From Dysgonomonadaceae bacterium zrk40 (GTDB taxonomy: Bacteria > Bacteroidota > Bacteroidia > Bacteroidales > Dysgonomonadaceae): a stretch of 64,000 bases of DNA. Position 1 is the first letter of the stretch; every line of letters begins with the position of its first letter. The stretch lies in NCBI GenBank assembly GCA_016916535.1, contig CP070276.1:682001-746000 (forward strand), in the 5' to 3' direction. This document shows, piece after piece, positions 1 through 19,057 of this stretch. The notes beneath the pieces were generated by a model, which did not search any database, had not been told where the DNA came from, and worked only from the letters and a program-made list of their open reading frames with translations. The translations under genes were made by a program, and so were the position numbers.

Positions 1-1020
1 GCAGAATGGATTGATTGGATAAAGATAAAACATCCAAAGACTTACCAAAAGATTCAAAAGCCGGTTGATATCCTTATTGCAACAGATGCTCTAAGCGAAG
101 GACAAAACTTGCAGGATGCCGATATGGTTATAAATTATGATATCCATTGGAATCCTGTCCGCATCATTCAGCGTTTGGGGCGTATTGACCGTTTAGGAAG
201 CCCCAATAATGAAATATTCGGTATTAATTTCTGGCCATCGAACAATATTAATTCTTATTTGAATCTACAAGGACGGATTGAACAACGGATGGCAGCCATG
301 AAACTGGCCGGAGCAGAAGTAGATGAAGAGTTTTCAGAATCCTTTCAGCAAATGATTCATGATGAATCCTTGGATCAGAAAATGAATAACCGGATGATGG
401 AACAGATGCAGATAACTTTCGATGATCTCGATGGTGAAGATACGTTTGGCTTTGATGATCTTTCTCTGGAAAGATACCGCCAAGATTTATTGGAAGAGTT
501 TAATAAGGACAGGGATAAGTATTTACGAATGCCTAAAGGAATTTATACAGGATTCAAGGCAGATATAGAGATTTGTCCCGAGAGTGGACTTATAGCACTC
601 CTTGGTTATCCTGCCAGAGCTGCGAAAGCGAAGAATCATGAATATAAGATTTTCGATCTTATTTATATCAATAAGCAAGGCTGTTTAGTGAAGTTAAATC
701 AAAAGGATGTGCTGGATGTATTAACCCATCATAAGGATAAGAGCCGGTTTGTACCGGATGAGATAGATAGGGGTGAAAAATCGGCCATTGAGGAATTGGT
801 TAACTCGCTAAAAAGTTGGCTAGACAGCCAAGCATACGAAGAACAGGTTCAAGAAGATGGTTCAACTAAGAAAGTGATGGGAAAGGAAATCAGGGATCTT
901 TTATCTAAACTCAGAAAAGGAGACAAAGATGCGCTGACACGAGTGAAGGAAAATGTAAAGGTGGATGAAAAATATCAACTGGATAATTTCGATTTAATAA
1001 CCTGGTTTCTGGTTTCATAG
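1..1020 (+). CDS. SNF2/superfamily 2 helicase, C-terminal part (5' end outside window)
   Basis: The reading frame is open from base 1, so only the last 339 residues are visible. They begin in the second RecA-like helicase lobe. Motif V reads LIATDALSEGQNL and motif VI reads QRLGRIDRLG (Q57-R64 of the fragment), typical of SNF2/RapA-like ATP-driven DNA translocases. The rest is a charged helical extension with no motif I recognise. The next gene, 78 bp downstream on the same strand, is a large adenine methyltransferase. A SNF2 helicase beside such a methylase is known from class 1 DISARM (DrmD/DrmMI) and related restriction-like loci, so a role in phage defence is inferred. The helicase lobe is secure; the family name is not. 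Confidence 0.8.
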   Translation, partial: AEWIDWIKIKHPKTYQKIQKPVDILIATDALSEGQNLQDADMVINYDIHWNPVRIIQRLGRIDRLGSPNNEIFGINFWPSNNINSYLNLQGRIEQRMAAMKLAGAEVDEEFSESFQQMIHDESLDQKMNNRMMEQMQITFDDLDGEDTFGFDDLSLERYRQDLLEEFNKDRDKYLRMPKGIYTGFKADIEICPESGLIALLGYPARAAKAKNHEYKIFDLIYINKQGCLVKLNQKDVLDVLTHHKDKSRFVPDEIDRGEKSAIEELVNSLKSWLDSQAYEEQVQEDGSTKKVMGKEIRDLLSKLRKGDKDALTRVKENVKVDEKYQLDNFDLITWFLVS

Positions 1021-1098
1021 AGAAAAAGAATACAGGAAATAATGCAACATAGCCTGCAAAACATAGAAGAGTTAGAAATAAATTAAAGAATCTCGATA

Positions 1099-4000
1099 AT
1101 GGATAGCATTAAGTTTTTTAGCGAATTACCTTTTATAGTTGCACTAAAATCGTTTTTTAACGATTTAAAAGTTCCCATGAATTATGTGGCTGACGAGCCT
1201 ACAACAGCTAAAGACATTCTTAAAGATACTTATAAGGATAATGATACTTTCCAGTTGATTAATGATGTTTATTTTGTTGGGATGGTCGATGATGCCGCAT
1301 TTGATGGCAATCAATCACTCGATGTAGAGAAAATTAAATCAGACTACGACGGTATTCTGATTTTTGGTATTACGCTGAAAGAACGCCCCAATGGGTTATT
1401 TCCCACCCGTTCCCAATTGGCTGAAATATCAAGGGCTTTTAATCGTGAGTTTTATTATACACCTGTAGTAGTGGTATTCAAGTATAATGATCATTTAGCT
1501 TTTGCCAATACGGAGCGGTTGAAATATAAACAGGAATGGAGAGAAGGTGAAAAGGCTGGAAAAGTGAGCTTATTGAGAGATGTTAGTATTAATCAACCTC
1601 ATTCCGGACATTTGCGTATTCTCCGAGAATTGAAGGTTCCAACTACAGGAACTAAACGAATTGATTCTTTTGCTGCATTGTACCTATATTGGCAGGAAGT
1701 TTTTAGTGTCAATGTTCTCAACAAGAAATTCTATCTGGAACTTTCCAACTGGTATTTCTGGGCTATAAAACATGTAATCTTTCCCGGAAAACCGACGATG
1801 GAAGAAGCCATAAAAAAGAATGCTAATATTGATGACTTAATTCTAGAACATAAAGCAATAAATGTGATTCGTATGCTTACACGTTTGCTTTTTGTTTGGT
1901 TTATAAAAGAAAAGAAACTGATACCCGAAGAGTTATTTGAGTTGGAGGTACTTCAGAAAAAAATCCTTAAAGACATATCTCCTTATCATGAATATGGACT
2001 CTTTACGGAAAGAAGTGTTGAAGGTATCTATTACAAAGCCATACTACAAAATCTTTTTTTCGCCACTTTAAACTGTCCTATCAAAGCGGATAATATTGAC
2101 AAGAGAAGTCGAGGCTTCAGGAATCAGGATCAGAATTATGGCGTTACATTCTTGATGAGGCACGAACAGTATTTTAAAGATAAAGATGCATTTTTAGAAC
2201 TCGTCAATAGCAAGGTTCCTTTCCTGAATGGTGGTTTATTTGAGTGTTTGGATGAAAGGGGAGTTGGCGAAAAAAAAGATGAACGGACCTGGATTGATGG
2301 TTTTTCTGATAACCTACCTAAAGATCAGAAGTTGGTAGTCCCGGATTATTTGTTTTTTGGTCTTGAAGAAGAAACCGATTTAAGTGATGTTATAGGTATA
2401 AATGACAAAAAATACAAACGTGCTGCGGTAAAAGGGTTGATCAATATTCTGAAATCCTATAAATTTACCATTACGGAAAACACTCCTATCGAAGAAGATG
2501 TGGCTCTTGATCCTGAATTATTAGGAAAAGTTTTCGAAAATTTACTAGCAAGCTATAATCCTGAAACAAAAACTACTGCTCGAAAACAAACAGGTTCATT
2601 CTATACACCACGAGAAATCGTTAGTTATATGGTAGATGAAAGTTTGATTGCATATCTCAAAAATGCGATTAAAGAATGGAATGGGCTGGATGATAATTCT
2701 TTGGATAAAGCACTCAGATCTCTTATTTCTTTTGATAGTAAAGATTATCTTCTAAATAATCCTGATTTAAAAAAAGAAATAATTTCCAAACTCAATACCT
2801 GTACTATACTTGATCCAGCCTGTGGTTCAGGAGCATTTCCAATGGGGATATTGCAGAAAATGGTACATATTCTACAAAAGCTTGATCCTGATAACGATAC
2901 ATGGAAAGAAGTGCAATTAGAAAGAGCATACGAAGAAAGCAAGGCTGCATTTGAAATAGAAGATAAGCACACTCGGGAAGAGCGTCTATTGGAAATAAAT
3001 GAAGTTTTCGACCAAAACGTTAATGATCCTGATTATGCACGTAAATTATACTTGATAGAGAACTGTATTTATGGAGTAGATATACAACCCATAGCTATTC
3101 AGATTGCCAAGTTACGTTTCTTTATCTCTCTAGTTGTAGAACAACGAGTAAACCCCAATAAAGTAAATTTTGGCATACGCCCTTTGCCTAACTTAGAAAC
3201 CAAATTTGTAAGCGCAAATACTTTAATAGGGATAGAAAAACCAAGCGCACAGCTAAGCTTATATGATACTAAAGAAGTGAGAATTCTGGAATCTGAACTT
3301 AAGAAAGTGCGTAGCAAACTTTTTGGAGCAAAAAGTAAGGAAACAAAGCTTAAGCATCGGAAACGTGATGAAGAACTTAGGAATGCGATTGCAAATGAAC
3401 TGGAAAAAAGTGGATGGAAGAGTGATACTGCCAAAAAATTAGCTAGTTGGGATCCTTATAATCAAAATGCGTCTTCAAACTTTTTCGACCCGGAATGGAT
3501 GTTTGATATTAAAGATGGTTTTGATGTGATAATCGGAAATCCACCTTATATTAATGCAAATGAATTGAAAAAGAGACTTGGAGAATATGATTACGAATTT
3601 TTAAAATCAGGTTTTGTTTCTGCGAAAGGTACAATAGATATATATATACTATTTTTCGAATTTGGACTAAGGAATTTAAGTGAAATTGGTCATTTGATTT
3701 ATATTACACCAAATCGATATCTTTCTGCAAGTTATGGAGAAGCATTACGTGGATTGATTCATGACCAATATTCAATAATAAGTATCTCTGATTTTTCAAG
3801 TGTGAAAGTTTTTGAGGCGGCCTCAACATATCCAATAGTGTCTTTAATCGGAAACTCTAAGCAAAGAAGACCCATAAGTATCAAAGAATTTAATGATAAA
3901 TTCGAGATAAATAAAGAATGGGAAAATCAGTTTTCTGACTTGAATCTTCTTCCAGGAAAAATTTGGGGATTTCTTCTAAACAGTAAAATTGATATTGTGA

Positions 4001-4860
4001 AAATAATGATTTCTAAGGACCAATCTTTATCTTCTTGCGGAATTATAAATGCAACTTCTACTGCAAAAGAAGCTGATGAGTACCATGATTTAATTAATGA
4101 AAAAAAAGGGCTTAAGTTAATTAATACTGGCACCATTGATCGATTTTTACCACTTTGGGGTAAAAGCACATTAACAGACAAAGGATCAACTTTTTTAAAA
4201 CCTTATCTTGATATAGATAGCAGAAAGATCTCTATGGCAAGGAAAAAGCTTTATCAAAGTCCTAAAATTATATTCGCAAAGATTGGTTTGAGAACGGAAG
4301 CCTTCTTTGATCAAAATGGGGAGTTTGCTTCTATAAATACAAATTGTATTCATTCATTTAAAACAGAATATCATCCAAAATATATTACTCTTTGGGTGAA
4401 TTCGCTTTTATATCAATTTTTATTTAGTTGTTTTTTTGAGGGTTTAAAAATGGCAGGGGGATATCTTTTATATTCAGCTCCAAATTTAAAAAGCACATAC
4501 ATAAAGAAACCCTCACATGCAGAAACAAATGTTGCTATAAATTTGTATGATTTTCAGATTTGGTGTCTTCAAAATAATAATTCTATTAATATTGATACAA
4601 TAATTGATGGTTACTTCTTCAATCTCTACTTCCCAGACCATATGAACGAGCGAGAAATAAATATTATTGAATTTGTGGAACAGGACATTGTGGAGGTAAT
4701 GCAAGGAAGGGAATTTGATAAAATGAATAATGAGGAAAAAGAAAAAGTAATAGAACAACTTTCTGGAAAATGGAATCATCCTGATAATGGGATTAATAAT
4801 CGTATTAAACTATTTGCTGTACGTAGTCCAGAGATTTTAAGACCAATCTTGGAAGGATAA
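1099..4860 (+). CDS. Large N6-adenine DNA methyltransferase (Eco57I / DrmMI / type IIG-like), 1253 aa
   Basis: The protein should methylate adenine in DNA using S-adenosylmethionine. The SAM-binding motif I is LDPACGSGAF (D572-G578), preceded by the usual TGSFYTPREIV segment near residue 500, and catalytic motif IV is NPPY at 814-817. Residues 820-1250 probably form the target-recognition part. The first ~200 residues (DGILIFGITLKE, TPVVVVFKYND) are alpha/beta and might be a degenerate nuclease or docking domain, but I see no convincing PD-(D/E)XK triad. The length fits type IIG, PglX and DrmMI enzymes. The stop overlaps the next start (TAATG), so it is translationally coupled to the ATPase gene. 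It may mark self DNA or be the modification half of a restriction system. Confidence 0.85.
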   Translation: MDSIKFFSELPFIVALKSFFNDLKVPMNYVADEPTTAKDILKDTYKDNDTFQLINDVYFVGMVDDAAFDGNQSLDVEKIKSDYDGILIFGITLKERPNGLFPTRSQLAEISRAFNREFYYTPVVVVFKYNDHLAFANTERLKYKQEWREGEKAGKVSLLRDVSINQPHSGHLRILRELKVPTTGTKRIDSFAALYLYWQEVFSVNVLNKKFYLELSNWYFWAIKHVIFPGKPTMEEAIKKNANIDDLILEHKAINVIRMLTRLLFVWFIKEKKLIPEELFELEVLQKKILKDISPYHEYGLFTERSVEGIYYKAILQNLFFATLNCPIKADNIDKRSRGFRNQDQNYGVTFLMRHEQYFKDKDAFLELVNSKVPFLNGGLFECLDERGVGEKKDERTWIDGFSDNLPKDQKLVVPDYLFFGLEEETDLSDVIGINDKKYKRAAVKGLINILKSYKFTITENTPIEEDVALDPELLGKVFENLLASYNPETKTTARKQTGSFYTPREIVSYMVDESLIAYLKNAIKEWNGLDDNSLDKALRSLISFDSKDYLLNNPDLKKEIISKLNTCTILDPACGSGAFPMGILQKMVHILQKLDPDNDTWKEVQLERAYEESKAAFEIEDKHTREERLLEINEVFDQNVNDPDYARKLYLIENCIYGVDIQPIAIQIAKLRFFISLVVEQRVNPNKVNFGIRPLPNLETKFVSANTLIGIEKPSAQLSLYDTKEVRILESELKKVRSKLFGAKSKETKLKHRKRDEELRNAIANELEKSGWKSDTAKKLASWDPYNQNASSNFFDPEWMFDIKDGFDVIIGNPPYINANELKKRLGEYDYEFLKSGFVSAKGTIDIYILFFEFGLRNLSEIGHLIYITPNRYLSASYGEALRGLIHDQYSIISISDFSSVKVFEAASTYPIVSLIGNSKQRRPISIKEFNDKFEINKEWENQFSDLNLLPGKIWGFLLNSKIDIVKIMISKDQSLSSCGIINATSTAKEADEYHDLINEKKGLKLINTGTIDRFLPLWGKSTLTDKGSTFLKPYLDIDSRKISMARKKLYQSPKIIFAKIGLRTEAFFDQNGEFASINTNCIHSFKTEYHPKYITLWVNSLLYQFLFSCFFEGLKMAGGYLLYSAPNLKSTYIKKPSHAETNVAINLYDFQIWCLQNNNSINIDTIIDGYFFNLYFPDHMNEREINIIEFVEQDIVEVMQGREFDKMNNEEKEKVIEQLSGKWNHPDNGINNRIKLFAVRSPEILRPILEG

Positions 4861-6590
4861 TGAAAAGAATTAAAGAAATTAAGATTAAGAACTTCAAAGC
4901 TTTTCAACAAGAACAAATTTTTCCTGTAAATGGAAAACATGTATTAGTTTATGGGAATAATGGTTCCGGAAAATCATCTTTGTTCTGGGCTTTGTACACT
5001 ATGTTGCAAAGTAGCATCAAAAATGACGATGGTGTGAAGAAGTATTTCGAGAAATATGATGAATCAAATAAAAGTACCCATCAGACGTTGAAAAATGTTT
5101 TTATGAATGAAAATGAAGATTCATACATAAAATTGACAGCTATTGACACGGATACATTCCATGAGCAAACATATACTATTTCTTATGACGTTATCAACAC
5201 AAACGAAGATACAGACCCGCTTATAAGGGAACTGAATATTGCAAGTGATTTTATTAATTATAAGTTATTGCACAACTTTTATCGTGCATCACACAAACAC
5301 GAAGTAAATCTTTGGCCGGTCTTTGAAAGGGATATTTTTCCTTTTCTTACAGAAGGAACAAAAAATTGGTTAGAGGATATTATAAAGTTCCAAACATCAG
5401 ATATTCCGAGAACTCCTAAAGGAGCAGCGGTTTCTCGAAGCAGAAAACAAAGATATATTGAAGGCATTGATGATTTAAATACAAGAGTCCAATTATTACT
5501 TACAAGTATAGCGGATAGTGCAAATTTTATTTTGAAGAATCATTTCTATAATGGTCAGGATGTTATCCGCATTTCTCTAAGTTTTGAAGGGAAATTTAAA
5601 TTCAATTTAATCAAAGAAAGAATATGGGATGATAAAAAACAAGGTCAAAGGCATGATGAATTGCGCATAAAACTTGGAGTAGAAATATATGATGAGACCT
5701 ATCCTGATAATTGGCGCAAAATAGAGCGTGTTCAATCTTTTCTCAATGAAGCGCAGCTTACCAGAATTGCCGTTGCTGTTCGTATAGGCGCATTACGAAC
5801 CCGGCCATTAGCAGCCGCAAGATTTAAAATACTTGTTCTCGATGATATGCTGATTAGCTTAGACTTATCTAATAGGATGGATATAGTTCGTATAATACTC
5901 AATAAAGAAGAAAAAGAGGATCTTAAATTTTTTGATGGTCTGCAGAAATTTATATTCACCCATGATAAGGGATTTTTTAACCTGATACGAAGAAATACTG
6001 ATGAAGAAGAATGGGTGTATTTTGATTTTAATAAAGATGAGAATAAACATAATGCCCCTGAAGTCAAAGAAAATAAAACCTCTCTACAAAGAGCTATCCG
6101 TTATTTTGAAGAAAACGAATTCGAGGCTTGTGGAAATGAATTGAGAAAAGAAGCAGAGGTTATTCTTACAGACTTTTTGGATCCGAATATGAAGAAATTC
6201 AATAAAGAATTTGAGGCACTGAGCGTTAAATTGGACAAAGCGTTTAATGAATTATCAAGCAAACGGCATCAAAAGTTTACACAACGATTTCTGTTGGATT
6301 TAGAGCCTGAAAAGTTGAGAAAGATAAGAACGGACTATTCTGGAGACGAGTCATTGACCGCACAAGAAAAACTCAGGTTGGACGGGATAAAAGAGAGGCT
6401 TTTCGACTTTTTAATAGAATTCAATGAAAAGAAGAACAGGAAGGAGTTGTTAATAGAACAAACAAAAGATATTCTTGATAGGATTATGAATGCTTCTTCG
6501 CATCATTCCGAGAATCCTATTCATAGAGAAGAATTAAAAGACGCAATCTCAAAGATGGTAGAATTAAAAGAACAACTGAAGCATGATTGA
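4860..6590 (+). CDS. RecF/SMC-like AAA ATPase with HEPN-like helical tail, 576 aa
   Basis: The N-terminus (IKEIKIKNFKAFQ) is the classic start of SMC/RecF/OLD-type ATPases. Walker A is GNNGSGKSS at residues 32-40. Residues ~300-335 hold a signature-like LNEAQLTRIAVA followed by Walker B ILVLDDMLISLD. No TOPRIM nuclease domain follows. The C-terminal ~170 residues are helical and contain NASSHH near residue 545 followed by a conserved-looking PIHREEL. This resembles the tails of RloC/PrrC-like and other defence ATPases, though the comparison is from memory. The gene overlaps the methylase stop by one base, so the two are probably made together. The likely role is an ATP-dependent DNA-end or phage sensor in the defence locus. 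Confidence 0.75.
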   Translation: MKRIKEIKIKNFKAFQQEQIFPVNGKHVLVYGNNGSGKSSLFWALYTMLQSSIKNDDGVKKYFEKYDESNKSTHQTLKNVFMNENEDSYIKLTAIDTDTFHEQTYTISYDVINTNEDTDPLIRELNIASDFINYKLLHNFYRASHKHEVNLWPVFERDIFPFLTEGTKNWLEDIIKFQTSDIPRTPKGAAVSRSRKQRYIEGIDDLNTRVQLLLTSIADSANFILKNHFYNGQDVIRISLSFEGKFKFNLIKERIWDDKKQGQRHDELRIKLGVEIYDETYPDNWRKIERVQSFLNEAQLTRIAVAVRIGALRTRPLAAARFKILVLDDMLISLDLSNRMDIVRIILNKEEKEDLKFFDGLQKFIFTHDKGFFNLIRRNTDEEEWVYFDFNKDENKHNAPEVKENKTSLQRAIRYFEENEFEACGNELRKEAEVILTDFLDPNMKKFNKEFEALSVKLDKAFNELSSKRHQKFTQRFLLDLEPEKLRKIRTDYSGDESLTAQEKLRLDGIKERLFDFLIEFNEKKNRKELLIEQTKDILDRIMNASSHHSENPIHREELKDAISKMVELKEQLKHD

Positions 6591-6619
6591 TTCTTGGAAG
6601 CTATTAATTTAAAAAATAG

Positions 6620-6627
6620 TAACTTTG
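6620..6627 (+). promoter_or_regulatory. Candidate Bacteroidota -7 box
   Basis: TAACTTTG matches the Bacteroidota -7 consensus TAnnTTTG and lies in the only sizeable gap (110 bp) of the defence locus, 74 bp before the next start. No good TTTG is seen at the -33 spacing, so this is tentative. If real, the three genes from 6701 to 10178 form their own transcription unit. Confidence 0.35.
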
Positions 6628-6700
6628 AACGGTTATAATTGAAATAATGATATGGTGAGTGGTAATCTGTAGAGTAACATTTTGATTCTATGGAGAATTT

Positions 6701-7798
6701 ATGAAAGATAAAAATATAATATATAGTCTACATCGTCCGTTTCACAAACCATTGGTCAGTGTCAAATGGGTTTGTCAATACATGGGAAAAATGGAGAAAA
6801 GGAAGAAAAATATAATTCCTTCTTCCTTTTATTCCGATTTCTTTTTTTATTTTATTGATATCCTTGATAAGAAATATGATAAAAGAAAATCTACTGATGA
6901 ACTTGAAGGCATTCCCCCACAAGAAACAATAAAAGAAATATTATCACATTTCAGTTGTTATTCTCGTAAGAAAAAGACAGCCTTATTGAAGGATATTTTG
7001 GCAAATAGAGAAAGTGATATTGATAGAAAAGTATATTCAACGTATAAAGCTACTTCTTATTATATCAATCTTGCCAAAGACAAGTTTGAATTAATAGGCA
7101 AGAACTATAAGCTTAGTGTTTGCGGCAAACAGTTAGCTTCAAGCCGAAGCCCATTTTTCTCGTTGTCAAAGGCTGAGCAGGAAATTATATTTGAAAGGAT
7201 ACTACATGCTGATTTTTATATGATAATTCCTTTATGCCTTTCTTTGAAAAGCATAAAGAGATATAAATGGGACATTCCAAGCATTCATTTATATTTTATA
7301 GAAAAAGTATATAACGTAAATCATTTTAAATATACTCAAGCAAGTATCACGAAAAATTACGATAACGTCAGATTATATTGGGTTGATTCTCTAAACGTAT
7401 TGGATAAGAACATGAATATCAGGAAAAGATATCTTGATATTATATTAAATGACAACAGATACAGGGAGAGTTATAGTAATATGCAGCAAGATTTTATCCG
7501 TTTTGAGGCAGATTTTTTGATTTTTCAGAATCAAAAATTAGGATTCAATTCAAAATTGGAAAACTCATATAATAACAATCTAAAGAGCGGATTACATGAT
7601 CAGAATTTTGTAAACTTATACGATATAAAAAAAGACTTTCGCCTCTCTTTTACTAATTTTGAGAGTATGCTGAATTCTTATTACGAATCGCAGAGGAAAA
7701 AACGATTGATCCTATTTAGTAATACAGTGACAAATATTGATAAAAGGAAGCGTTTCTATGTTCGTAATAAACCGGTTATCAAAATAAAAATATTTTAG
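6701..7798 (+). CDS. Hypothetical protein of defence locus, 365 aa
   Basis: I do not recognise this family. The protein is basic, rich in Lys, Tyr and Phe, with no signal peptide or membrane segment. Residues ~120-150 (YINLAKDKFELIGKNYKLS and on to CGKQLA) read like a winged-helix unit, followed by LSKAEQEIIFERI, a pattern seen in several restriction- and ATPase-associated proteins. GGAG lies about 8 bases before the ATG and supports this start. Its stop is 2 bases before the next ATG, so it is almost certainly translated with the P-loop ATPase. A DNA-binding or adaptor role is inference from this arrangement. Confidence 0.7.
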   Translation: MKDKNIIYSLHRPFHKPLVSVKWVCQYMGKMEKRKKNIIPSSFYSDFFFYFIDILDKKYDKRKSTDELEGIPPQETIKEILSHFSCYSRKKKTALLKDILANRESDIDRKVYSTYKATSYYINLAKDKFELIGKNYKLSVCGKQLASSRSPFFSLSKAEQEIIFERILHADFYMIIPLCLSLKSIKRYKWDIPSIHLYFIEKVYNVNHFKYTQASITKNYDNVRLYWVDSLNVLDKNMNIRKRYLDIILNDNRYRESYSNMQQDFIRFEADFLIFQNQKLGFNSKLENSYNNNLKSGLHDQNFVNLYDIKKDFRLSFTNFESMLNSYYESQRKKRLILFSNTVTNIDKRKRFYVRNKPVIKIKIF

Positions 7799-7800
7799 TT

Positions 7801-9324
7801 ATGGTCATTGAAAATTTATGGAATAAAATTGATCCGATACCAGCAACCGTAGAGCAATTAAAAAGGGATCTGAAGGAAGGAAAAGTTCCGGAGTTGCCTT
7901 ACTTTATTGTAGATATGGATGCTGCTAAAAAGAAGATTTCAACTTACTTGGAAAGTCTTGATTTGACCTTTCAGACTTGTCTTGTTACTGCCAATTATGG
8001 AAATGGAAAAACGAATTTGCTTAAATATTTAAAATTATTATTTTCTGGAAATGAGAATATTAAAGTTGTATTTCTTCGTGCAGATGTCGATCAATATGAT
8101 TTGATTTTATTTATCTTGAAAATTATTCAAGATAATTATCTAGACGATATAAAATCGTCCATTATACAGTTGAGAGAGAATAATTATAATACTCCAGATC
8201 TGGTATATTCGTACCAAGATGGCTTTGCAGCAATAAGAGATTATACCACTAAATTATTTTCGGAAGATGACGAGGATAAACTGGCTAGATTAATATATCT
8301 TGGAACGGGTAGGTTATATACAAAAAATAGTTTTAAGGAATTTGATTTGGAGCAACTAACTAATTTTAATCGTAGGGAGGTATTGGTTCTTTTTCTAAAT
8401 ATTCTTTCTGCAAACAACATTTATATAATATTTGGCATTGACGAAACTGAAAAAATTCAAGAAAAATCAAAACCAAGATTCGGGCATTTTTTAACTTCTT
8501 ATCGAGAACTATATGACTTGTCTTCTTTGATAAAAGGTCATTTTCTGATAACCTGTTTTACGGATTCATCCGGAAAAAGTTCCCAATCATGGATCGAAGA
8601 AGTAAATCCTGCATTTTCTAGAAGAATTGTTGATCGGATCGTTGAGCTACCAATAATTACAAAGACCAAAGACTATAAGGAACTTGTGCAAAACCTGAAT
8701 GAATTGTTTGAAACAAAGAAATCCCCGGAAGATATTGACAAAATAGTATCAAGTGTAAGAAAGAAAGGTTTGAGTAAAAATAGTGAGATTGTAAAATCAA
8801 TTTGTACCGAATTATTTGAGGTGTCAGAGCAAAAAACTTTAGATGATTTGTTAGATCAATATGGCATAAGAGAGTTATTTGAGGAGACACGTGAAAGATT
8901 GCAGTTAGAAAATGCTTTCGCAAGATTAAACCTCAAGTTTTTTGATCCTCTCGAGGAATATTTAGTTGCAAACAATTATAGTAGTGGTGATTATGAAATA
9001 AAAACACAGGGGAGACAATCATATATCGATAAATCTCTAAATATTAGTCACTTGTTCTTGTTCACAACAGACTTTGATATAAATGTAACCCGAATTATAA
9101 ATATTCAAGCTGACTATGAGCAGAATAAGCTTATTATTTATGTTCCTGAAGGATTAGATATTAATTATTCATATCTACATGATAAGGGTATTGATAATAT
9201 TGAAATTGTAGACTATAACCCCGAAGATTTAATGACCTTGCTTGTGATGTATCGCGATGAGAATTTTGAGTTTGGGGATCAGATTAAGTCGGTAATTTCA
9301 AAATATACTAATAAAAATCTCTAA
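7801..9324 (+). CDS. P-loop ATPase, BrxD/ORC-like, 507 aa
   Basis: This is a AAA-type ATPase. Walker A is ANYGNGKT (residues 64-71), and Walker B is IIFGIDETE with the catalytic pair D214-E215. A later HFLITCFTDSS resembles a sensor-1 strand. A regulatory-looking N-terminus, a P-loop near residue 65 and a long helical C-terminal half match the layout of BREX BrxD-like and archaeal ORC-like ATPases. I cannot assign the family firmly. Gaps to both neighbours are 2 bases, so the three genes form one translational unit. In known systems such ATPases sense or load other defence subunits onto DNA; that role here is inferred. Confidence 0.7.
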   Translation: MVIENLWNKIDPIPATVEQLKRDLKEGKVPELPYFIVDMDAAKKKISTYLESLDLTFQTCLVTANYGNGKTNLLKYLKLLFSGNENIKVVFLRADVDQYDLILFILKIIQDNYLDDIKSSIIQLRENNYNTPDLVYSYQDGFAAIRDYTTKLFSEDDEDKLARLIYLGTGRLYTKNSFKEFDLEQLTNFNRREVLVLFLNILSANNIYIIFGIDETEKIQEKSKPRFGHFLTSYRELYDLSSLIKGHFLITCFTDSSGKSSQSWIEEVNPAFSRRIVDRIVELPIITKTKDYKELVQNLNELFETKKSPEDIDKIVSSVRKKGLSKNSEIVKSICTELFEVSEQKTLDDLLDQYGIRELFEETRERLQLENAFARLNLKFFDPLEEYLVANNYSSGDYEIKTQGRQSYIDKSLNISHLFLFTTDFDINVTRIINIQADYEQNKLIIYVPEGLDINYSYLHDKGIDNIEIVDYNPEDLMTLLVMYRDENFEFGDQIKSVISKYTNKNL

Positions 9325-9326
9325 TT

Positions 9327-10178
9327 ATGTTCCAGTCGCAAAGTAAATATAAGTTATTTTCTTATTCATTTCTTTTCGAAAAAATAATCAGCCCATTTGT
9401 TGATCTGATTAGTGACTTTATATCGATAGAAGATGGCGATAATTGGGAAATTATCACTGCAATAGACTTTACTAATATAAATGAGGAATTAGCAAAGGAA
9501 ATAGGTAATCTAAAAAGTAGAAATAACAAATTTAAAGAAGAACAACAAAAATGTGATGGAGGAACAGATGAATGTAAGGAAGCCTTACAAAAGGAAAAGG
9601 ACGAGATAGAAACGGAACGTGAGAGGCTGAAAAGAAGGGGTTATGAAACGATAAACAAAGTTTTCATAGATAAAATCTTTGCCTCAGAAAATTTTTTGCT
9701 CTATCATAGAGCAAAAATAGTTTTTATTGACAAAAGAAATAAGTATATCATCGCAAAGAATGATAACATATTAAGTGTTTTCCAGACAGTATTAATAAAA
9801 TCCCAATTAATTACCCAGCTTCTTGCTCATGTCAATAAGAGAGGTACTGTTAACTTTGGTGTACTTTCAAGTTTCGACAATAAGAATTTATATGAATCGG
9901 CTATCAATATAGACGAAATTAAAGGATTGACATGTCCAGTAATAAATTTATCCTACATTAAAGAGGATTTCAACAAAACTCCCATTGAGGGTGATGATAT
10001 ATGGATGTCCGAGATATTCCTTGAGGAATTCCTATTACCAGAAGTATATTCTCATAACAAGAACTATTTTATTCTCCAAGAGAAAGAAAAAAAATCCGGT
10101 GTAATTGTCGGTAATATTTGCTTTTTCTATGATAGTAATTCAATATCCTTAATTAAAGAGGATGTATATATTAATTAA
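9327..10178 (+). CDS. Coiled-coil protein of defence locus, C-terminus possibly cut by IS21, 283 aa
   Basis: I do not recognise this protein. Residues ~50-105 are strongly charged and heptad-like (NEELAKEIGNLKSRNNKF, then KEKDEIETERERLKRR), indicating a coiled coil that contains the only two nearby cysteines. The remainder looks alpha/beta. The stop codon falls exactly where the IS21 element begins, so the stop may be created by the insertion. A reading frame without a start resumes on the far side of the IS at 12689. The two may be halves of one ~600-residue protein, or two truncated genes. Confidence 0.6.
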   Translation: MFQSQSKYKLFSYSFLFEKIISPFVDLISDFISIEDGDNWEIITAIDFTNINEELAKEIGNLKSRNNKFKEEQQKCDGGTDECKEALQKEKDEIETERERLKRRGYETINKVFIDKIFASENFLLYHRAKIVFIDKRNKYIIAKNDNILSVFQTVLIKSQLITQLLAHVNKRGTVNFGVLSSFDNKNLYESAINIDEIKGLTCPVINLSYIKEDFNKTPIEGDDIWMSEIFLEEFLLPEVYSHNKNYFILQEKEKKSGVIVGNICFFYDSNSISLIKEDVYIN

Positions 10179-10258
10179 AAAGTACCCCACATTTCAATTT
10201 AAAAGTATACCACTTACAACTATGAATGGATTTTATCCGTTCTTAACAAATGATAAGT

Positions 10259-11836
10259 ATGTATACAAAACAGGAAATCATTATTAGCAGCTATCGTGAT
10301 GGTAAAAGCCAGCGTACTATAGCCCGCGAACTGCAGATCAGTCGTAAGACTGTCAATAAGTACATTCAGGAGTATGAAGCAACTTTAGAATCCTCTGATT
10401 GCAAAGAGACAGCCGGTGCATTATTTTTATCCGGCAATCCAGTCTATAAGATGACTGTACCCCGCGGTAAACTAAAGCTTACAAACGATGTGCAAGAGTT
10501 TATAGATAAACTGCTTTCTAAAAACAAAGAGAAGCTTGAGCAGGGATTGCAAAAGCAGCTGATGAAAAAGAAAGACATCCATGATGCACTGCTTGATCAT
10601 GGTTTTGATGTAGGATACACCACGCTGTGCAACTACATAAGGCTTAAAGAGAAGCAGCAGTCATCTAAAGAGGCATATATCCGTCAGGCTTATGCACCTG
10701 GTGATATATGTGAATTTGACTGGGGTGAGATTAAACTTTTGATTGGTGGTAAACGCACAAGCTTACAACTTGCTGTTTTCACCAGTGCCTACAGTAACTG
10801 GCGGTATGCTTTTATCTATAATCGTCAGGATACACTCGCGTTTATGGAAGCTCATACACGCTTCTTTGAGAAGATTGGCGGTGTATACCGTGAGATGGTT
10901 TATGATAATATGCGGGTTGCAGTAGCAAGGTTTGCAGGTAATCATGAGAAAGAGCCCACTCGCGCTTTACTGGAGCTTAGAGGTCATTATCAGTTTACTC
11001 ACCGCTTTACCAACTTCTATCGCGGGAATGAGAAAGGTCACGTAGAGCGCAGCGTGGAGTACGTGCGCCGTAAAGCCTTTGCTCCCAAAGATGATTTTAA
11101 CTCTGCCCATGAAGCTCAACGGTGGCTTGATTCCACTTTAGAGAGGCTTAACGGGGTTAAACAGCAGGGTACGGGCAAGAGTGCCAATATGCTTCTGGAG
11201 GAAGAGAGAAGAGTTCTGGGCAAACATCCGGTATCAGTGATGATTTGCAGTGAACAGATCCAGCTAAGAGCAGATAAATATGCAACCGTCAGCCATCAGG
11301 GCAACCGTTACTCTGTACCCGATCATCTGGTAGGCCTGTTTGTTGATGTGAGCATCAGAAGCAGAGAGGTATATATCTTCTTTGAAAATAAACGGGTTGC
11401 CATTCATTCCCGTAGCTACAAGCCTCATGACTGGGTAATTGATATAGAACATTACCTTGGCACATTCAAGAAAAAGCCGGGAGCTCTTGCCGGAAGCAAG
11501 GCTCTGGCAGACAATAATTATCTGAGAGATCTTTATCTCAACTTCTTCCAGGATGAGCCTCGTGAGTTTATTGAACTGTTATCTTACTGCCGTGAACAGA
11601 TGGTTAGTGAAGAGAAGCTGGAAGAATCAGTAAAGCGATTACTTGGCACCTGTGCTGACAATGTTACTGTCGAGAGGCTGCTAGCTCTTATTGGTAACAA
11701 GCATCCTGTAACACCAATAACAGAGACCACAGATAATATAGCCATTAAAGCTAAAGAACAACTAACCTGGATTACCCAATTAATGCATCAAACAAACAAC
11801 AATGGACAATATAAATCAGCAAATAGCAGAATATAG
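10259..11836 (+). CDS. istA: IS21 transposase IstA
   Basis: This is the DDE recombinase of IS21. The N-terminus holds a helix-turn-helix (SQRTIARELQISRKTVNKYI) for end recognition. The catalytic core shows EFDWGEIKL (first Asp), MVYDNMRVAV (second Asp) and GNEKGHVERSVEY (Glu). The length of about 525 residues is normal. The ATG at 10259 fits the family N-terminus better than the one three codons upstream. Intact, so probably functional with IstB. Confidence 0.92.
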   Translation: MYTKQEIIISSYRDGKSQRTIARELQISRKTVNKYIQEYEATLESSDCKETAGALFLSGNPVYKMTVPRGKLKLTNDVQEFIDKLLSKNKEKLEQGLQKQLMKKKDIHDALLDHGFDVGYTTLCNYIRLKEKQQSSKEAYIRQAYAPGDICEFDWGEIKLLIGGKRTSLQLAVFTSAYSNWRYAFIYNRQDTLAFMEAHTRFFEKIGGVYREMVYDNMRVAVARFAGNHEKEPTRALLELRGHYQFTHRFTNFYRGNEKGHVERSVEYVRRKAFAPKDDFNSAHEAQRWLDSTLERLNGVKQQGTGKSANMLLEEERRVLGKHPVSVMICSEQIQLRADKYATVSHQGNRYSVPDHLVGLFVDVSIRSREVYIFFENKRVAIHSRSYKPHDWVIDIEHYLGTFKKKPGALAGSKALADNNYLRDLYLNFFQDEPREFIELLSYCREQMVSEEKLEESVKRLLGTCADNVTVERLLALIGNKHPVTPITETTDNIAIKAKEQLTWITQLMHQTNNNGQYKSANSRI

Positions 11837-12557
11837 CAAAGCTCTCAGACTGCCTGTTTTCAGACGAGATTACAAAGAGCTTGCAGCAGAGGCTGCTAAA
11901 GAGAGGATCGATTATGAAGAGTACCTTCTAAGACTCATGGAACGTGAGTGGGAAGTTAAGCAGGAGAACCGTAAAAAAGCTCAGATAAGGAATGCCAGGT
12001 TCCCTTCCAAAATGTATCTGACTAACCTTGAGCGAGATCAATTGCCACAGGGTGCAAAGGAAAAACTGCCTCTGCTTGAAAGACTGGATTTTATAGCATC
12101 ATCACAAAATGTGATACTATCCGGTAACCCGGGTACAGGCAAAACACACATAGCGATAGGGATTGGACTTAAAGCCTGTATGCAGGGATACAAAGTATTG
12201 TTTACAACCGTACACAGACTACTGACTCAATTACGTGAATCGCAGTCCCAAAAGACTTTAAAACAGGTTGAAAATCAATTTGAAAAGTATGATCTGGTAA
12301 TATGTGATGAGTTTGGATATGTATCTTTCGATAAGCAGGGAGCAGAGTTGCTGTTTAATCACCTCTCTTTAAGAGCAGGAAGAAAATCAACCATCATAAC
12401 AACAAACCTTGGCTTTGACCGGTGGGAAGAGATCTTTGGAGACCCAGTACTTACAGCTGCTCTTGTAGACAGGCTAACCCACAAAGCACATCTTGTAAAT
12501 ATGAATGGTGAATCGTACAGATTAAAGGAAACTAAAAAAATGATGAATGAAAAATGA
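11802..12557 (+). CDS. istB: IS21 helper ATPase IstB
   Basis: This is a DnaC/DnaA-like AAA+ ATPase that selects the target DNA and activates IstA. Walker A is GNPGTGKTHIA and Walker B is LVICDEFGYV. The 251-residue length is normal. It starts 35 bp inside istA in another frame, which suggests coupled translation. Confidence 0.92.
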   Translation: MDNINQQIAEYSKALRLPVFRRDYKELAAEAAKERIDYEEYLLRLMEREWEVKQENRKKAQIRNARFPSKMYLTNLERDQLPQGAKEKLPLLERLDFIASSQNVILSGNPGTGKTHIAIGIGLKACMQGYKVLFTTVHRLLTQLRESQSQKTLKQVENQFEKYDLVICDEFGYVSFDKQGAELLFNHLSLRAGRKSTIITTNLGFDRWEEIFGDPVLTAALVDRLTHKAHLVNMNGESYRLKETKKMMNEK

Positions 12558-12688: not shown

Positions 12689-13639
12689 AATAAACAAGAG
12701 GAACGGATAGTTGACTATTATTGGCATCTATTAAAAAATAATCTATACAGGCTACCTTCGCAACCTAATGGAGACAAACTGCCATTAGTTAAAGAGTTCA
12801 ATGAGGAAGTAAAAAAAGAAGATTTTGCATACTTACTCTCAAACTTAAAAAAAAATCTATACGTAGAGGATATTGACATCCCTGTTGCATATCAGAAGTA
12901 TTTCGAAGCCATTTTTAAACTCGATAAATTAAAGCATTTATCTGGTTATGAACTGTACTTGCCTTATAAATCAAATCGGGAATCATCCATTGTCGGTATT
13001 TATCATACTGACAGGAAGCCGTCGGAGACACATTATAATTTAGTTCATTGGATTAGTAGTCACGAAGAAAAAAACAAGATATATGAATTTTCAAATGAAA
13101 AACCCGATGTGAAAAAGAAGAAATTAATCTATGTTTTGAAACCGGAAATTAGTTTCTATTTCAGATATAAATATTTTGAAGACTTTTTTGAAGAGATATT
13201 AAAAGAATCAGGACTTAACTATATCTCAAATTATAAGGTTAAATACAAATCTAATGATAACGAAGCAGAATTCGATTTTATAATAAAAACAGATCAGAAG
13301 ATTTACGTAATAGAGTTAAAAACAACGTTACGAAACGAGGAAATAGCCAAATACGAGAAAAAGTGTATGAAATTGATGCAAGAATTACCAACCATTCAAG
13401 ATAATCTGGAATTTCTTATCATCGGATCATTGAGTGACGAAAATTGTGAAACGTATAGATATTATATAGAAGAAGGAAAAAAGCAATATCAAGATTACAA
13501 TTCTAAACGGGAAGAAGTGAGTATAGTACCTTATAGGTTTACAATTCCCATTAGGTCATCTTCAGATAAAAAACTTGTATGTATCGCAGAGCCATCATTT
13601 GAAAGATTAAAGAGTATTATAGACGAAATATGTGTATAG
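12689..13639 (+). CDS. PD-(D/E)XK-like nuclease protein, N-terminus lost to IS21
   Basis: The frame is open from the IS21 edge with no ATG in its first ~90 codons; the TTG at 12959 is unlikely to be the true start. The C-terminal half contains EAEFDFIIKTDQKIYVIELK, matching the E...D...ExK core of the PD-(D/E)XK nuclease fold, so DNA cleavage is plausible. The N-terminal part is unrecognised. The gene overlaps the following adenine methyltransferase by 10 bp, suggesting a coupled nuclease and methylase pair like a restriction-modification system. The visible remnant probably is not expressed normally, because its original start and promoter lie beyond the insertion or are deleted. Confidence 0.6.
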   Translation, partial: NKQEERIVDYYWHLLKNNLYRLPSQPNGDKLPLVKEFNEEVKKEDFAYLLSNLKKNLYVEDIDIPVAYQKYFEAIFKLDKLKHLSGYELYLPYKSNRESSIVGIYHTDRKPSETHYNLVHWISSHEEKNKIYEFSNEKPDVKKKKLIYVLKPEISFYFRYKYFEDFFEEILKESGLNYISNYKVKYKSNDNEAEFDFIIKTDQKIYVIELKTTLRNEEIAKYEKKCMKLMQELPTIQDNLEFLIIGSLSDENCETYRYYIEEGKKQYQDYNSKREEVSIVPYRFTIPIRSSSDKKLVCIAEPSFERLKSIIDEICV

Positions 13640-14688
13640 AACGACAACTCCCTGTAACCAGATATTATGGTTCAAAGCGTAAATTAATAAAAAAGATATG
13701 GGAGGTATTTGATGAGCTCCACCTTCAATTTGGCTCTGTGTTAGATGTCTTTGGAGGATCAGGAGTGTTTTCATACTCTTCAAAATGTTGTAATAAAGAT
13801 GTTACTTATAACGATATATTTACATTTAACTACTATATCGGAAAGGCTCTGTTAAGCAACTTTGCCTCTCCAATCGATCCGAATAGGATTTTGAATTTAT
13901 TGAATGAACATGAAGGTATTTTATATAGGAATACAATAGAGGAAAATTATAGGGATGTCTACTTTTTGGATGAAGAAAATCATTTAATAGATGTCATAGT
14001 CCAGAATATTGACATAGAGTTTGATAATGAGTTCGAAAAGGCATCAGCTTTTTATGTTCTATTTCAAACTTGTTTAATAAAAAGACCATTTAATTTATTC
14101 CATAGAAAGAATCTCTCTTTAAGGACGAATCATATAACGTCGAATTTCGGTAATAAGATAACATGGGAAAAAAGTTTCCATGAATTATTCGAGCAATTCA
14201 TCAAAGAACTGCAAGAGGTTCAATTTAATAATAGAAGAATCAATAATATTACGAACACGTCCGCTTTGAATTGTAATGTTGAAGCTGATTTGGTTTATAT
14301 TGACCCTCCATATTTCAATTCCAAAGGCTCACACATTTCTTATCACTCTCGGTATCATTTTCTGGAAGGGTTGACTAATTATAATGAGTTGGAGGATTTT
14401 ATCTCTTTAGAGAAGAATAATAAAGAGATTCAGATTAATCATTCAAAAGAATTTGAATCCAGATCGAACTTTTGCGACGATATGAGGCAGTTGCTTTCTA
14501 AGCACATCAATTCTATAATTGTGATCTCATACCGGGATAGTGGCTATCCGTCAATTGAAGAAATAAAAAAGATTTTATCAGAATTCAAACCGGAAGAGAA
14601 TATTCATAGTATAAATCTTGGAGAGTATTCTTATGCTTTAAATAGAAGTAGGATTAAAGCTAATGAGTATTTAATTATCGGTCGATAA
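13630..14688 (+). CDS. D12-class (Dam-like) DNA N6-adenine methyltransferase, 352 aa
   Basis: The protein transfers methyl from S-adenosylmethionine to adenine in DNA. The N-terminal TRYYGSKRKLI and SAM motif VLDVFGGSGVF are characteristic of the D12/DpnM-Dam class, and catalytic motif IV is VYIDPPYF. The length is somewhat longer than Dam (~280), with an insertion between the motifs that probably reads the target. The start overlaps the upstream nuclease-like frame by 10 bp. The inferred role is self-DNA protection for that nuclease or an accessory of the defence locus. Only 13 bp separate its stop from the left end of the nested IS. Confidence 0.85.
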   Translation: MCIERQLPVTRYYGSKRKLIKKIWEVFDELHLQFGSVLDVFGGSGVFSYSSKCCNKDVTYNDIFTFNYYIGKALLSNFASPIDPNRILNLLNEHEGILYRNTIEENYRDVYFLDEENHLIDVIVQNIDIEFDNEFEKASAFYVLFQTCLIKRPFNLFHRKNLSLRTNHITSNFGNKITWEKSFHELFEQFIKELQEVQFNNRRINNITNTSALNCNVEADLVYIDPPYFNSKGSHISYHSRYHFLEGLTNYNELEDFISLEKNNKEIQINHSKEFESRSNFCDDMRQLLSKHINSIIVISYRDSGYPSIEEIKKILSEFKPEENIHSINLGEYSYALNRSRIKANEYLIIGR

Positions 14689-15265: not shown

Positions 15266-15337
15266 GTAAGCCCCCGATAAAATACCCATTTTAGCGAAAA
15301 TGGTTTTTTCCGATCTTTGCCTGCAAACCTATTTTCT

Positions 15338-15715
15338 ATGAAGCCTGTAAGCAAAGAAGAATTCCTGGCGATACTGGAACGCCAACAGAAGAGCGGGTTA
15401 AGCATCAAGGACTTTTGTGCGAACGAGTCCTATACGGTCTCAAGCTTCCACTACTGGAAAACCAAGTTCGGACTCACCCGGCCCTATAACAATCATGCGC
15501 CGGATGCACCCACGGACATGCTGGCACCAATCAACTTAAACCTACCCATAAAAGCCCCTGTATCCTCGCCGGCCTCATCACCACGCAGCAGTCAGGGAGA
15601 GATCAGGATCAAGCTCCCGGGAGGTATCCAGGTCAGTTTCATTGGCAGTGCCCAGACAGAGATCGCTATCAATTTACTGAATCAAATCTGCTCACGCCAT
15701 GTTCTGCCTGAATGA
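15338..15715 (+). CDS. tnpA: IS66 accessory protein TnpA
   Basis: This is a small IS66 Orf1-type protein. The N-terminal KEEFLAILERQQKSGLSIKD and YTVSSFHYWKTKFGL form the expected helix-turn-helix. Start taken at the second Met (15338), which fits the family; an upstream Met at 15317 is possible. Its end overlaps tnpB by 17 bp. Confidence 0.85.
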   Translation: MKPVSKEEFLAILERQQKSGLSIKDFCANESYTVSSFHYWKTKFGLTRPYNNHAPDAPTDMLAPINLNLPIKAPVSSPASSPRSSQGEIRIKLPGGIQVSFIGSAQTEIAINLLNQICSRHVLPE

Positions 15716-16058
15716 TAATATGCGCTACTTCCTGTGTCCTGGGAAGACAGACATGCGAAAAGGGATGAACTCGCTCTGTGGTGTGGTTCAAAACCTGATG
15801 GGATATGATGTGCGCATGGGTGATGTCTTCATCTTCATCAATCGAAACCGTACAACCATGAAGCTTTTGCATGCAGAAGATGGAGGGTTGGTTCTGTACA
15901 TGAAAAGGCTCGAGGAAGGCACCTTCCGCATTCCCGCGTACGATGAGAAGAGTCGTTCCTATCCCATGCAGTGGCGTGATCTGGTGATGATGGTAGAAGG
16001 GATACAGGATGATCCGGGCAGCCGGTTGAAGAGGCTCAAAGCGATGAGAAACGGGTAG
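15699..16058 (+). CDS. tnpB: IS66 accessory protein TnpB
   Basis: This is the IS66 Orf2 family protein of about 119 residues, required with TnpC for transposition. The motif CPGKTDMRKGMNSL and the core GDVFIFINRNRTTMKLL are diagnostic. It overlaps tnpA in another frame, consistent with coupled translation. Confidence 0.93.
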   Translation: MFCLNDNMRYFLCPGKTDMRKGMNSLCGVVQNLMGYDVRMGDVFIFINRNRTTMKLLHAEDGGLVLYMKRLEEGTFRIPAYDEKSRSYPMQWRDLVMMVEGIQDDPGSRLKRLKAMRNG

Positions 16059-16153
16059 TAAAAATAATCAGAAAAAGAGTGAAAATAATCTCCTGAAAGC
16101 TTGTCCAGATCAGGGTTTTTTATTATTTTTATGACTGAATAAAAGCCCGGTAA

Positions 16154-17731: not shown

Positions 17732-17899
17732 CGAATCTCTAGTCAAAATCTAATAATGCTCTAATAAATGCCTATAGGCACTCTAATAATACGCTAACAA
17801 TTTACTAGAGAACCCGCAGTTGTCGGAATGAATAATCTGATCAAATCCGTGGGTGCATATGCTCCGGAATAATCAAGAGGCAGTTGCTCGGGTGCTTAC
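17732..17899 (+). other. IS66 copy 1, non-coding right end
   Basis: These 168 bp between tnpC and the right terminal repeat hold TGCCTATAGGCA, a short palindrome, in AT-rich sequence. No gene is visible. The same segment occurs inverted at 21027-21194. Confidence 0.7.
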
Positions 17900-17907
17900 C
17901 GAAGGAT

Positions 17908-18186
17908 GAAGAAGATGATAATGATGACGACCCTGATCCTCATCCCGGGAACAAGGGGAAGCTTCAATTGGATGCAACGGTCTGTGATGCGGATATCAAG
18001 TATCCCACCGACCTGGACCTGTTGAACGAGAGCCGTCAAAAAGCAGAGGAACTGATTGATGAACTGTGTTTGAAGCTGGGAGTTCAGGATAAACCCCGCA
18101 CGTACATGAGGGTTGCCCGCAAGGAGTTCCTGAATGTGTCGAAAATGAAGAGAAAACCGGCCAACGTGTTAAGAAAAGCGATACGC
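17908..18186 (+). pseudogene. IS1182/IS5-like transposase, fragment 2
   Basis: This fragment holds the first catalytic aspartate region (KLQLDATVCDADIKYPTD). It runs from the IS66 target duplication to the ATACGC duplication where the second IS21 entered. The in-frame tail from 18187 is IS21 DNA, not the gene. Confidence 0.85.
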
Positions 18187-18287
18187 TGTGTATTTCGGTC
18201 TGATAGTGCCACTCTTTTCGGTCAAACCGTGTCACTATAATTCATAGTTTTTACCTATTTGAAAGATCATTGGCAAAGTTAATAATT

Positions 18288-19028: not shown

Positions 19029-19057
19029 TATTATAGGTTTATAATTAACTAATTTGC

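What the first reader, a model, noticed from the sequence alone, without database searches (positions are those of the whole stretch)
1..10178. Possibly undescribed multi-gene defence system: helicase, methylase, SMC-like ATPase plus a BrxD-like cassette
Seen in sequence: a SNF2 helicase and an adenine methylase (NPPY, 1253 aa) followed by an RecF/SMC-like ATPase coupled by TAATG, then three tightly spaced genes with a second, different P-loop ATPase. From known families: helicase plus large methylase occurs in class 1 DISARM, and BrxD-like ATPases in BREX, but no PglZ, BrxL, DrmA, DrmB or DrmC gene is visible. Two distinct ATPases plus an unknown 365-residue protein and a coiled-coil protein with helicase-methylase core do not match a system I can name. 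Inference: a restriction-like system that marks self DNA and uses ATPases to sense or translocate on foreign DNA. The part upstream of base 1 could still reveal a known type.
Basis: partly seen in the sequence, partly recalled or inferred. Interest (0 to 1): 0.75.

Follow-up and report, generated by a model that had tools for sequence, protein, structure and literature searches.

The report
Three-gene DNA restriction system plus orphans
This bacterium carries a recurrent three-gene set that looks like a DNA-defence system (a DNA-cutting motor, a DNA-marking enzyme and a clamp-like ATPase), and the three genes beside it have no known relatives, so the proposed six-gene system does not hold but the core is real and testable.

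Summary
The six genes are present at the stated coordinates. Upstream sequence from the same genome completes gene 1: a 1124-residue HKD (phospholipase-D-type) nuclease fused to a SNF2 helicase; it does not lead into BREX or DISARM. Genes 1-3 (HKD-SNF2 helicase, N6-adenine methylase with a TaqI-like recognition domain, SMC/Rad50/RecF-class ABC ATPase) recur in this order and strand in 55 of 86 loci found through gene 3 (49 of the 67 with at least 9 kb upstream), in several phyla, and diverge in parallel. I read them as a restriction-modification-like module, closest in logic to BREX-related Type-2 systems but with an ABC ATPase instead of the DUF499 AAA+ ATPase. Genes 4-6 were found in none of those loci, match no profile credibly in four libraries, and have no credible relative in the collections searched. 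They sit in a slot behind the ATPase that holds a different family almost every time (29 families in 34 loci). So the six-gene system is not supported; a conserved trio plus an orphan cassette is. The mechanism (methylation protects self, the ATPase licenses cutting by the motor nuclease) is inferred. Two papers likely to describe the trio could not be read.

The parts
1..1020 (+). Gene 1, C-terminal part. The full gene begins 2355 bases upstream of the window (C1:679646-683020), 1124 aa: N-terminal HKD/PLD nuclease half-site fused to a SNF2-type helicase
   Evidence: HKD and helicase motifs conserved in 56 aligned sequences, the window's included
1099..4860 (+). Gene 2: 1253 aa N6-adenine DNA methylase (DPACGSGAFP, NPPY) with TaqI-like C-terminal specificity domain
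4860..6590 (+). Gene 3: 576 aa SMC/Rad50/RecF-class ABC ATPase with a helical C-terminal extension
6701..7798 (+). Gene 4: 365 aa orphan; the true start may lie further in (an ATG 27 codons downstream)
7801..9324 (+). Gene 5: 507 aa orphan P-loop ATPase (Walker A ANYGNGKT, Walker B IYIIFGIDETE, both by reading)
9327..10178 (+). Gene 6: 283 aa orphan with a coiled-coil-like hairpin (about residues 50-110) whose turn carries two cysteines (by reading)

Best explanation
Genes 1-3 are one restriction-modification-like defence module. The methylase (gene 2) adds N6-methyladenine at sites chosen by its TaqI-like domain and so marks host DNA. The HKD-SNF2 protein (gene 1) is an ATP-driven DNA motor that cuts unmarked DNA with its HKD nuclease, probably as a dimer because one HKD half-site per chain is seen. 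The SMC/Rad50/RecF-class ATPase (gene 3) probably clamps DNA in its ATP-bound dimer and licenses or loads the motor-nuclease, a gate between recognition and cutting. Genes 4-6 are a separate orphan cassette in the variable slot just downstream of the trio, an accessory or independent module (a protein that may bind DNA, a P-loop ATPase, a coiled-coil protein), not a part of the conserved machine. Shown: domains, conserved catalytic motifs, gene order, linkage, parallel divergence, genes 4-6 not found elsewhere. Inferred: that methylation protects, the ATPase gates, the HKD protein cuts, and that the target is phage or plasmid DNA.
Against: No experiment on this trio. 14 of the 67 well-covered loci have the ATPase relative without a methylase relative directly upstream (11 Poribacteria, one Latescibacterota, two Prevotella-type), and 18 lack the full trio, so the ATPase family is wider than the trio. 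The 86 loci are not thinned: some are near-duplicates (for example L050/L051, L115/L116) and some are fragments (L048). In L036 and L113 gene 3 is 65% and 50% identical but gene 1 only 30%, so partners are sometimes exchanged. The recognition domain was scanned only in the window's methylase. Gene 4 follows gene 3 by 110 bases, so co-transcription with the trio is possible, and genes 4-6 could have been missed where contigs end soon after the ATPase.
Confidence: 0.72

Rival explanations
1. The six genes form one new defence system, genes 4-6 being a lineage-specific sensor and second motor added to the trio.
For: Same strand, gap of 110 bases between genes 3 and 4, then 2 and 2 bases; similar low GC.
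Against: Genes 4-6 in none of 112 loci nor among 1148 ORFs; the closest complete trios (L034, L035, L040, L042) stand without them as far as their contigs reach; the slot downstream of the trio is occupied by 29 families in 34 loci.
Confidence: 0.12
2. Genes 4-6 are an independent, undescribed three-gene defence (or mobile-element) module with an AAA+-type ATPase that merely shares the island.
For: Tight 2-base spacing and a P-loop ATPase, next to a conserved restriction-like trio on one side and, beyond an IS21-type element, a NERD-like nuclease plus D12 methylase pair on the other.
Against: No relatives found, so no co-occurrence can be shown; guilt by association only.
Confidence: 0.45
3. 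The trio acts by abortive infection (the HKD-SNF2 protein attacks host DNA when the ATPase senses infection) rather than by classical restriction.
For: Suicide action on self DNA has been proposed for systems with an HKD nuclease fused to an SF2 helicase (PMC10853773, passages).
Against: The window's methylase carries its own recognition domain, which fits self-marking better.
Confidence: 0.25
4. It is a divergent BREX or DISARM locus whose missing genes lie upstream.
For: Cross-hits of gene 1 to DrmD, BrxHI/HII and DrmA models and of gene 2 to PglX and DrmMI models.
Against: Upstream, by reading of the ORFs, are an IS3-type transposase and then SusC/SusD-type genes (these ORFs were not scanned against profiles). 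NCBIfam scores lie far under the cut-offs (136 of 610 bits for DrmD, 59 of 500 for PglX). Only one PglZ in the genome, 1.1 Mb away in a 542-aa frame; no MZB domain in the genome. DrmA, DrmC and BrxL were not searched genome-wide.
Confidence: 0.02

Closest known systems
BREX-related (BR) Type-2 systems (PMC12839542, passages seen)
   Same: HKD nuclease fused to a Swi2/Snf2 helicase, an N6-adenine methylase and an ATPase in one locus, proposed there to act as a restriction-modification-like system
   Different: BR systems are centred on a DUF499 AAA+ ATPase plus, in Type-2, DUF3780. Here the third partner is an SMC/Rad50/RecF-class ABC ATPase, and Pfam reports neither DUF499 nor DUF3780 in the six proteins
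CxC-ABC ATPase / PbeABCD systems (PMC10853773, passages seen)
   Same: HKD nuclease-SF2 helicase fusion, ABC ATPase, sometimes a DNA methylase
   Different: Those pair the ABC ATPase with DndE and carry a CxC zinc hook; gene 3 has no CxC motif by reading, and no DndE match appears among the six proteins
MADS (methylation-associated defence system), mad2/mad3
   Same: Methylase and RecF-like ATPase; gene 3's best PADLOC match is mad3 (2.7e-11), gene 2 also matches mad2 (4.8e-10, behind type IIG models)
   Different: Scores are far below NCBIfam cut-offs (24 of 420 bits for MAD3, 21.5 of 720 for MAD2); no other mad model matches among the six. No MADS paper was found or read
[quoted passage not shown]
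   Same: Gao_RL is listed among systems with an SF1/SF2 helicase (PMC12278908, passage; the expansion 'restriction-like' is recalled); the second is cited as RM-like systems built on ABC ATPases (PMC12839542, passage)
   Different: Cannot be judged: neither primary paper is held. Either may already describe this trio
Type I restriction-modification (recalled)
   Same: Motor-nuclease and N6-methylase with target recognition; relatives of the trio carry Schlafen/AlbA_2, DUF1016 nuclease, KilA-N or Fic genes between helicase and methylase, as some type I loci do (recalled)
   Different: Recognition domain fused to the methylase, HKD instead of PD-(D/E)XK nuclease, extra ABC ATPase

Membership tests
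BREX | PglZ and BrxC/BrxD-type ATPase in the locus | tested here: not met
   None among the six proteins; PglZ only 1.1 Mb away; no BrxC_BrxD match in the genome at E<=0.001
DISARM class 1 | DrmD and DrmMI together with DrmA, DrmB, DrmC | tested here: not met
   DrmD cross-hit far below the NCBIfam cut-off; PADLOC cross-hits only over shared domains; no MZB domain in the genome (that DrmB carries MZB is recalled); no such gene upstream by reading
BR Type-2 | HKD nuclease fused to Swi2/Snf2 helicase | tested here: met
BR Type-2 | N6-adenine methylase in the locus | tested here: met
BR Type-2 | DUF499 AAA+ ATPase | tested here: not met
   No DUF499 match reported by Pfam at E<=0.1 for the six proteins (that the model is in the library is assumed); gene 3 is an ABC head
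BR Type-2 | DUF3780 | tested here: not met
   No match reported (same assumption)
CxC-ABC / Pbe | ABC ATPase with CxC hook, paired with DndE | tested here: not met
   No CxC in gene 3 by reading; PbeC model only 1.9e-4 over residues 3-55; no DndE match among the six proteins
MADS | the further mad genes beside mad2 and mad3 | tested here: not met
   Only weak mad2/mad3 similarity; no PADLOC or NCBIfam MADS match for genes 4-6 at E<=0.1
SMC/Rad50/RecF-class ABC ATPase (gene 3) | Walker A, signature region, Walker B with D-loop; ABC head fold | tested here: met
BrxC/BrxD (gene 5) | Match to Pfam PF10923 | tested here: not met
   No match in gene 5 or in the genome. Against one true BrxD (L131) the first 100 residues beat all 500 shuffles, but the Walker B-to-lid segment does not stand out (12% of shuffles reach it)
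Gao_RL | component families of the published system | not testable with these tools
   Primary paper not held; no match in the libraries bore that name

The most novel reading that the evidence does not exclude
Genes 4-6 are a new, so far single-copy three-gene module (a possibly DNA-binding protein, a BrxD/ORC-like AAA+ ATPase, a coiled-coil hairpin with a cysteine pair) that works as an independent or add-on defence unit; and the trio beside it is a widespread restriction system whose gatekeeper is an SMC-like clamp instead of the AAA+ ATPase of BREX-related systems.
Probability: 0.3. Interest if true: 0.6.

Novelty: new variant of a known kind. Interest (0 to 1): 0.42.

Why it matters
The trio recurs in several phyla, yet no profile library used here gave it a system name; PADLOC holds only a model called HKD+Snf2. 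It offers a clean comparison: the same motor-nuclease plus methylase logic run with an SMC/Rad50-class clamp instead of a DUF499 AAA+ ATPase. That makes a question testable, namely what the ATPase does between recognition and cutting. The slot behind the trio, filled by a different family almost each time, is a place to look for undescribed defence genes, and genes 4-6 are one such candidate.

Tried and rejected
Six-gene unit: rejected because genes 4-6 were found in none of the related loci. At a loose E<=1, one search gave 11 short gene-5 hits (E 0.015-0.41), all in loci that chance hits of gene 5 had brought in, and one gene-6 hit (L068, E 1.0). BREX and DISARM: rejected.

Relatives of gene 5: plasmids, phages, viral contigs with the whole protein and with two sub-segments, genome contigs with six 8-residue patterns (which reaches close relatives only: 149 stretches, none confirmed), and whole genomes: 395 of the phylum, 393 of the order, 101 of the family, 197 of the class of G298; draws overlap. 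The one hit at E<=0.001 outside the own genome, G298 (5.8e-6), lies in a SecD-like frame (by reading) and is judged chance. At E<=0.1 one search had 18 other genomes; the two best were read and lie in unrelated frames, the other 16 were not read. Two short hits (0.0045 and 0.0069) were not read. Gene 4: plasmids, viral (44), 393 genomes (4 hits besides its own, 0.003 to 0.01, not read). Gene 6: own genome only itself (29), plasmids, viral (43), 395 genomes (7 hits besides its own, best 3.1e-4; that one is an OmpA-like coiled-coil protein by reading; the second, 6.7e-4, has five stops; the others not read). Genes 4 and 6 were not searched in phages or genome contigs. Profile noise: gene 6 to EF-Ts (0.0066) and gene 5 to RapA (0.025) in NCBIfam, gene 6 to one PHROG (0.47). 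phmmer against solved structures: nothing for genes 4 and 5, three weak hits at E 0.4 or worse for gene 6. Gene 5 against one BrxD: blastp E 0.005 between non-corresponding segments, hhalign only the P-loop, 20 columns.

Structure of gene 5 without relatives: pLDDT 34, useless; no fold search was made with it. Residues 421-576 of gene 3 were not searched alone. No nuclease-type residues stood out in the methylase N-terminus, so no second nuclease is claimed. Promoter scan before gene 4: 4 found, 3.0 expected, uninformative.

Literature: nine searches. In their listings, and in the passages seen of PMC12839542, PMC10853773, PMC12278908, PMC11604996 and PMC8565338, nothing shows exactly this trio; no paper was read whole, PMC12458937 and PMC11090510 were listed but not opened, and Krishnan 2020 and Gao 2020 are not held.

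Dropped before counting: L006, L007 and L009-L013 were seen but are not in the 86. Four of 55 trios were left out of the distance test by length or score limits.
Full report
The observation. The window is C1:682001-746000 of a 3.47 Mb genome in three contigs. The upstream stretch L002 completes gene 1: L002:15646-19020, 1124 aa. Chance is not a concern: a run of 507 codons without a stop at 31% GC, with further long co-directional frames 2 bases away on both sides, does not arise by accident (own estimate).

What gene 1 adds. The first 180 residues, outside the window, carry a PLD-type domain (PLDc_2, 29.7 bits, cut-off 27) with the HKD half-site H111, K113 and GSSN 132-135, conserved at 85% or more in 56 aligned sequences together with the SNF2 helicase motifs. 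PADLOC's best match is a model described as 'HKD+Snf2' (C3a139, 3.6e-71).

No known type upstream. Before gene 1 lie, by reading of the ORFs, an IS3-type transposase (L002:14116-15212) and a regulator plus SusC/SusD-type genes; these were not scanned against profiles. I saw no PglZ, BrxL, DrmA, DrmB or DrmC there. The single PglZ of the genome is 1.1 Mb away (by size and phylum probably PorX, which is recall); there is no MZB domain and no BrxC_BrxD match at E<=0.001 anywhere in the genome.

The trio is a conserved unit. tblastn of gene 3 in plasmids gave four records; the best, from Prevotella sp. oral taxon 299 (28% identity, E 1e-33), shows HKD-SNF2, a 464-aa gene, methylase, ATPase and an HNH gene in a row. 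In 86 loci (L005, L033-L117) a methylase relative lies on the same strand within 1.5 kb upstream of the ATPase in 69, and the complete trio, same order and strand, is there in 55; among the 67 with at least 9 kb upstream, 53 and 49. The methylase-ATPase gap is 60 bases or less in 52 of the 53 trios of a stricter count, 19 of them with a 4-base overlap. The closest complete trios are L034 (74, 67 and 61% identity for genes 1, 2, 3), L035, L040 and L042. Record titles of trio loci name Bacteroidetes, Chlorobiaceae, Proteobacteria, Verrucomicrobia, Armatimonadetes, Latescibacteria and Oscillospiraceae. Distances between loci correlate: 0.79, 0.62 and 0.44 for the three gene pairs in 52 trios (window plus 51 of 55), maximum of 999 permutations 0.16. 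Against a strict unit: 14 of the 67 lack a methylase directly upstream and 18 the full trio; near-duplicate loci were not thinned; and partners have been exchanged in some (gene 3 at 65% but gene 1 at 30% in L036).

Genes 4-6 do not belong to it. tblastn with genes 4, 5 and 6 found nothing at E<=1e-3 in 112 loci: the 86, seven further loci of gene-3 searches, and 19 loci of chance gene-5 hits. phmmer found nothing at E<=10 among 1148 ORFs of 70 aa or more from the 86. Pfam, NCBIfam, PADLOC and PHROGs hold no credible match. Plasmids, phages (gene 5 only), viral contigs, genome contigs (gene 5, short patterns, close relatives only) and whole-genome draws gave no credible relative; weak hits that I read were unrelated, others were left unread and are told under Tried and rejected. 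Gene 5 has a P-loop by reading. Against one true BrxD its first 100 residues score 41 against a shuffled mean of 25 (sd 4.3; none of 500 shuffles reached it), other P-loop proteins of the locus reach 33-34, and its segment from Walker B onward does not stand out (12% of shuffles reach it). That is a hint, not membership.

The slot. In 34 of 51 trio loci with a downstream ORF the next gene is co-directional and within 200 bases, and those 34 genes fall into 29 families. Of ten of the 34 scanned, six have a defence-type domain above its cut-off (HNH, Schlafen, methylase, Piwi, deaminase, TIR), one an ABC-3C C-terminal domain below its cut-off, one is a glycoside hydrolase and two have none. Between helicase and methylase 15 inserts of 150 aa or more were listed; of ten scanned, four hold Schlafen/AlbA_2, two KilA-N, one a DUF1016 nuclease, one Fic, and two nothing known. 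The trio therefore travels with changing cargo, and genes 4-6 are most simply this genome's cargo.

Setting. The trio has 33-37% GC, genes 4-6 29-31%, the IS21-type pair 40-43%, the chromosome on both sides about 53%. Beyond the IS21-type pair stand a NERD-like nuclease and a D12 adenine methylase, then IS66-type and further IS21-type elements to about 22.8 kb (by reading). It looks like an acquired defence island.

How it works. The anatomy is that of restriction-modification: a methylase with its own recognition domain, a motor fused to a nuclease, and an ATPase of the DNA-clamping class. I propose that methylation marks self, that gene 3 clamps DNA and gates, and that gene 1 translocates and cuts unmarked DNA. 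Only the anatomy, conservation and linkage are shown. An abortive variant, as proposed for HKD-SF2 systems (PMC10853773, passages), remains possible.

Known or new. The closest system seen in print is BR Type-2 (PMC12839542, passages): same HKD-SNF2 and N6-methylase, but a DUF499 AAA+ ATPase and DUF3780. The membership test fails on those two, while the working analogy is strong. Nine literature searches did not show this trio with an ABC ATPase, but no paper was read whole and the two likeliest sources could not be opened. I therefore rate the trio a new variant of a known kind, with a real chance that it is already described.

Noticed in passing
12959-14688: A NERD-like nuclease (Pfam NERD 22.6 bits, cut-off 22.1) overlaps a D12-class adenine methylase: looks like a compact type II restriction-modification pair, separated from genes 4-6 by an IS21-type element.
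   Followed up: partly
10250-12557, 15317-22772: Dense insertion elements, by reading: an IS21-type istA/istB pair on +, IS66-type genes at 15.3-17.7 kb, a second IS21-type pair on - (18.3-20.6 kb), and a copy of the same 525-aa IS66-type transposase in inverted orientation at 21195-22772. They may have built the island.
   Followed up: no
L040:11841-17397 and L039:5147-10714: L040 (complete trio) and L039 (contig starts inside the methylase) share the same downstream set: an Hsp70-like protein of about 800 aa, a P-loop protein of about 415 aa and a 612-613-aa protein (by reading); in L040 a second HKD-SNF2 helicase follows. It looks like a further recurrent system.
   Followed up: no
L088:11873-14813, L100:11979-14791, L057:11977-13953: Argonaute-like genes sit close behind the ATPase: Piwi by Pfam in L057; by reading only in L088 and L100, with a TIR-like or DUF4062-like gene before them. 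L057 and L100 are complete trios; in L088 no helicase relative was detected.
   Followed up: partly
L091, L092, L099, L101-L103, L107-L112: Poribacteria- and Latescibacterota-type loci carry the ATPase relative (469-491 aa) without a methylase like gene 2, but with another large gene (595-1268 aa) directly upstream: perhaps a sister type with another partner.
   Followed up: no
window 9552-9575 (gene 6, residues 76-83): The coiled-coil-like hairpin of gene 6 has two cysteines at its turn (CDGGTDEC), which could form a disulphide or bind metal.
   Followed up: no
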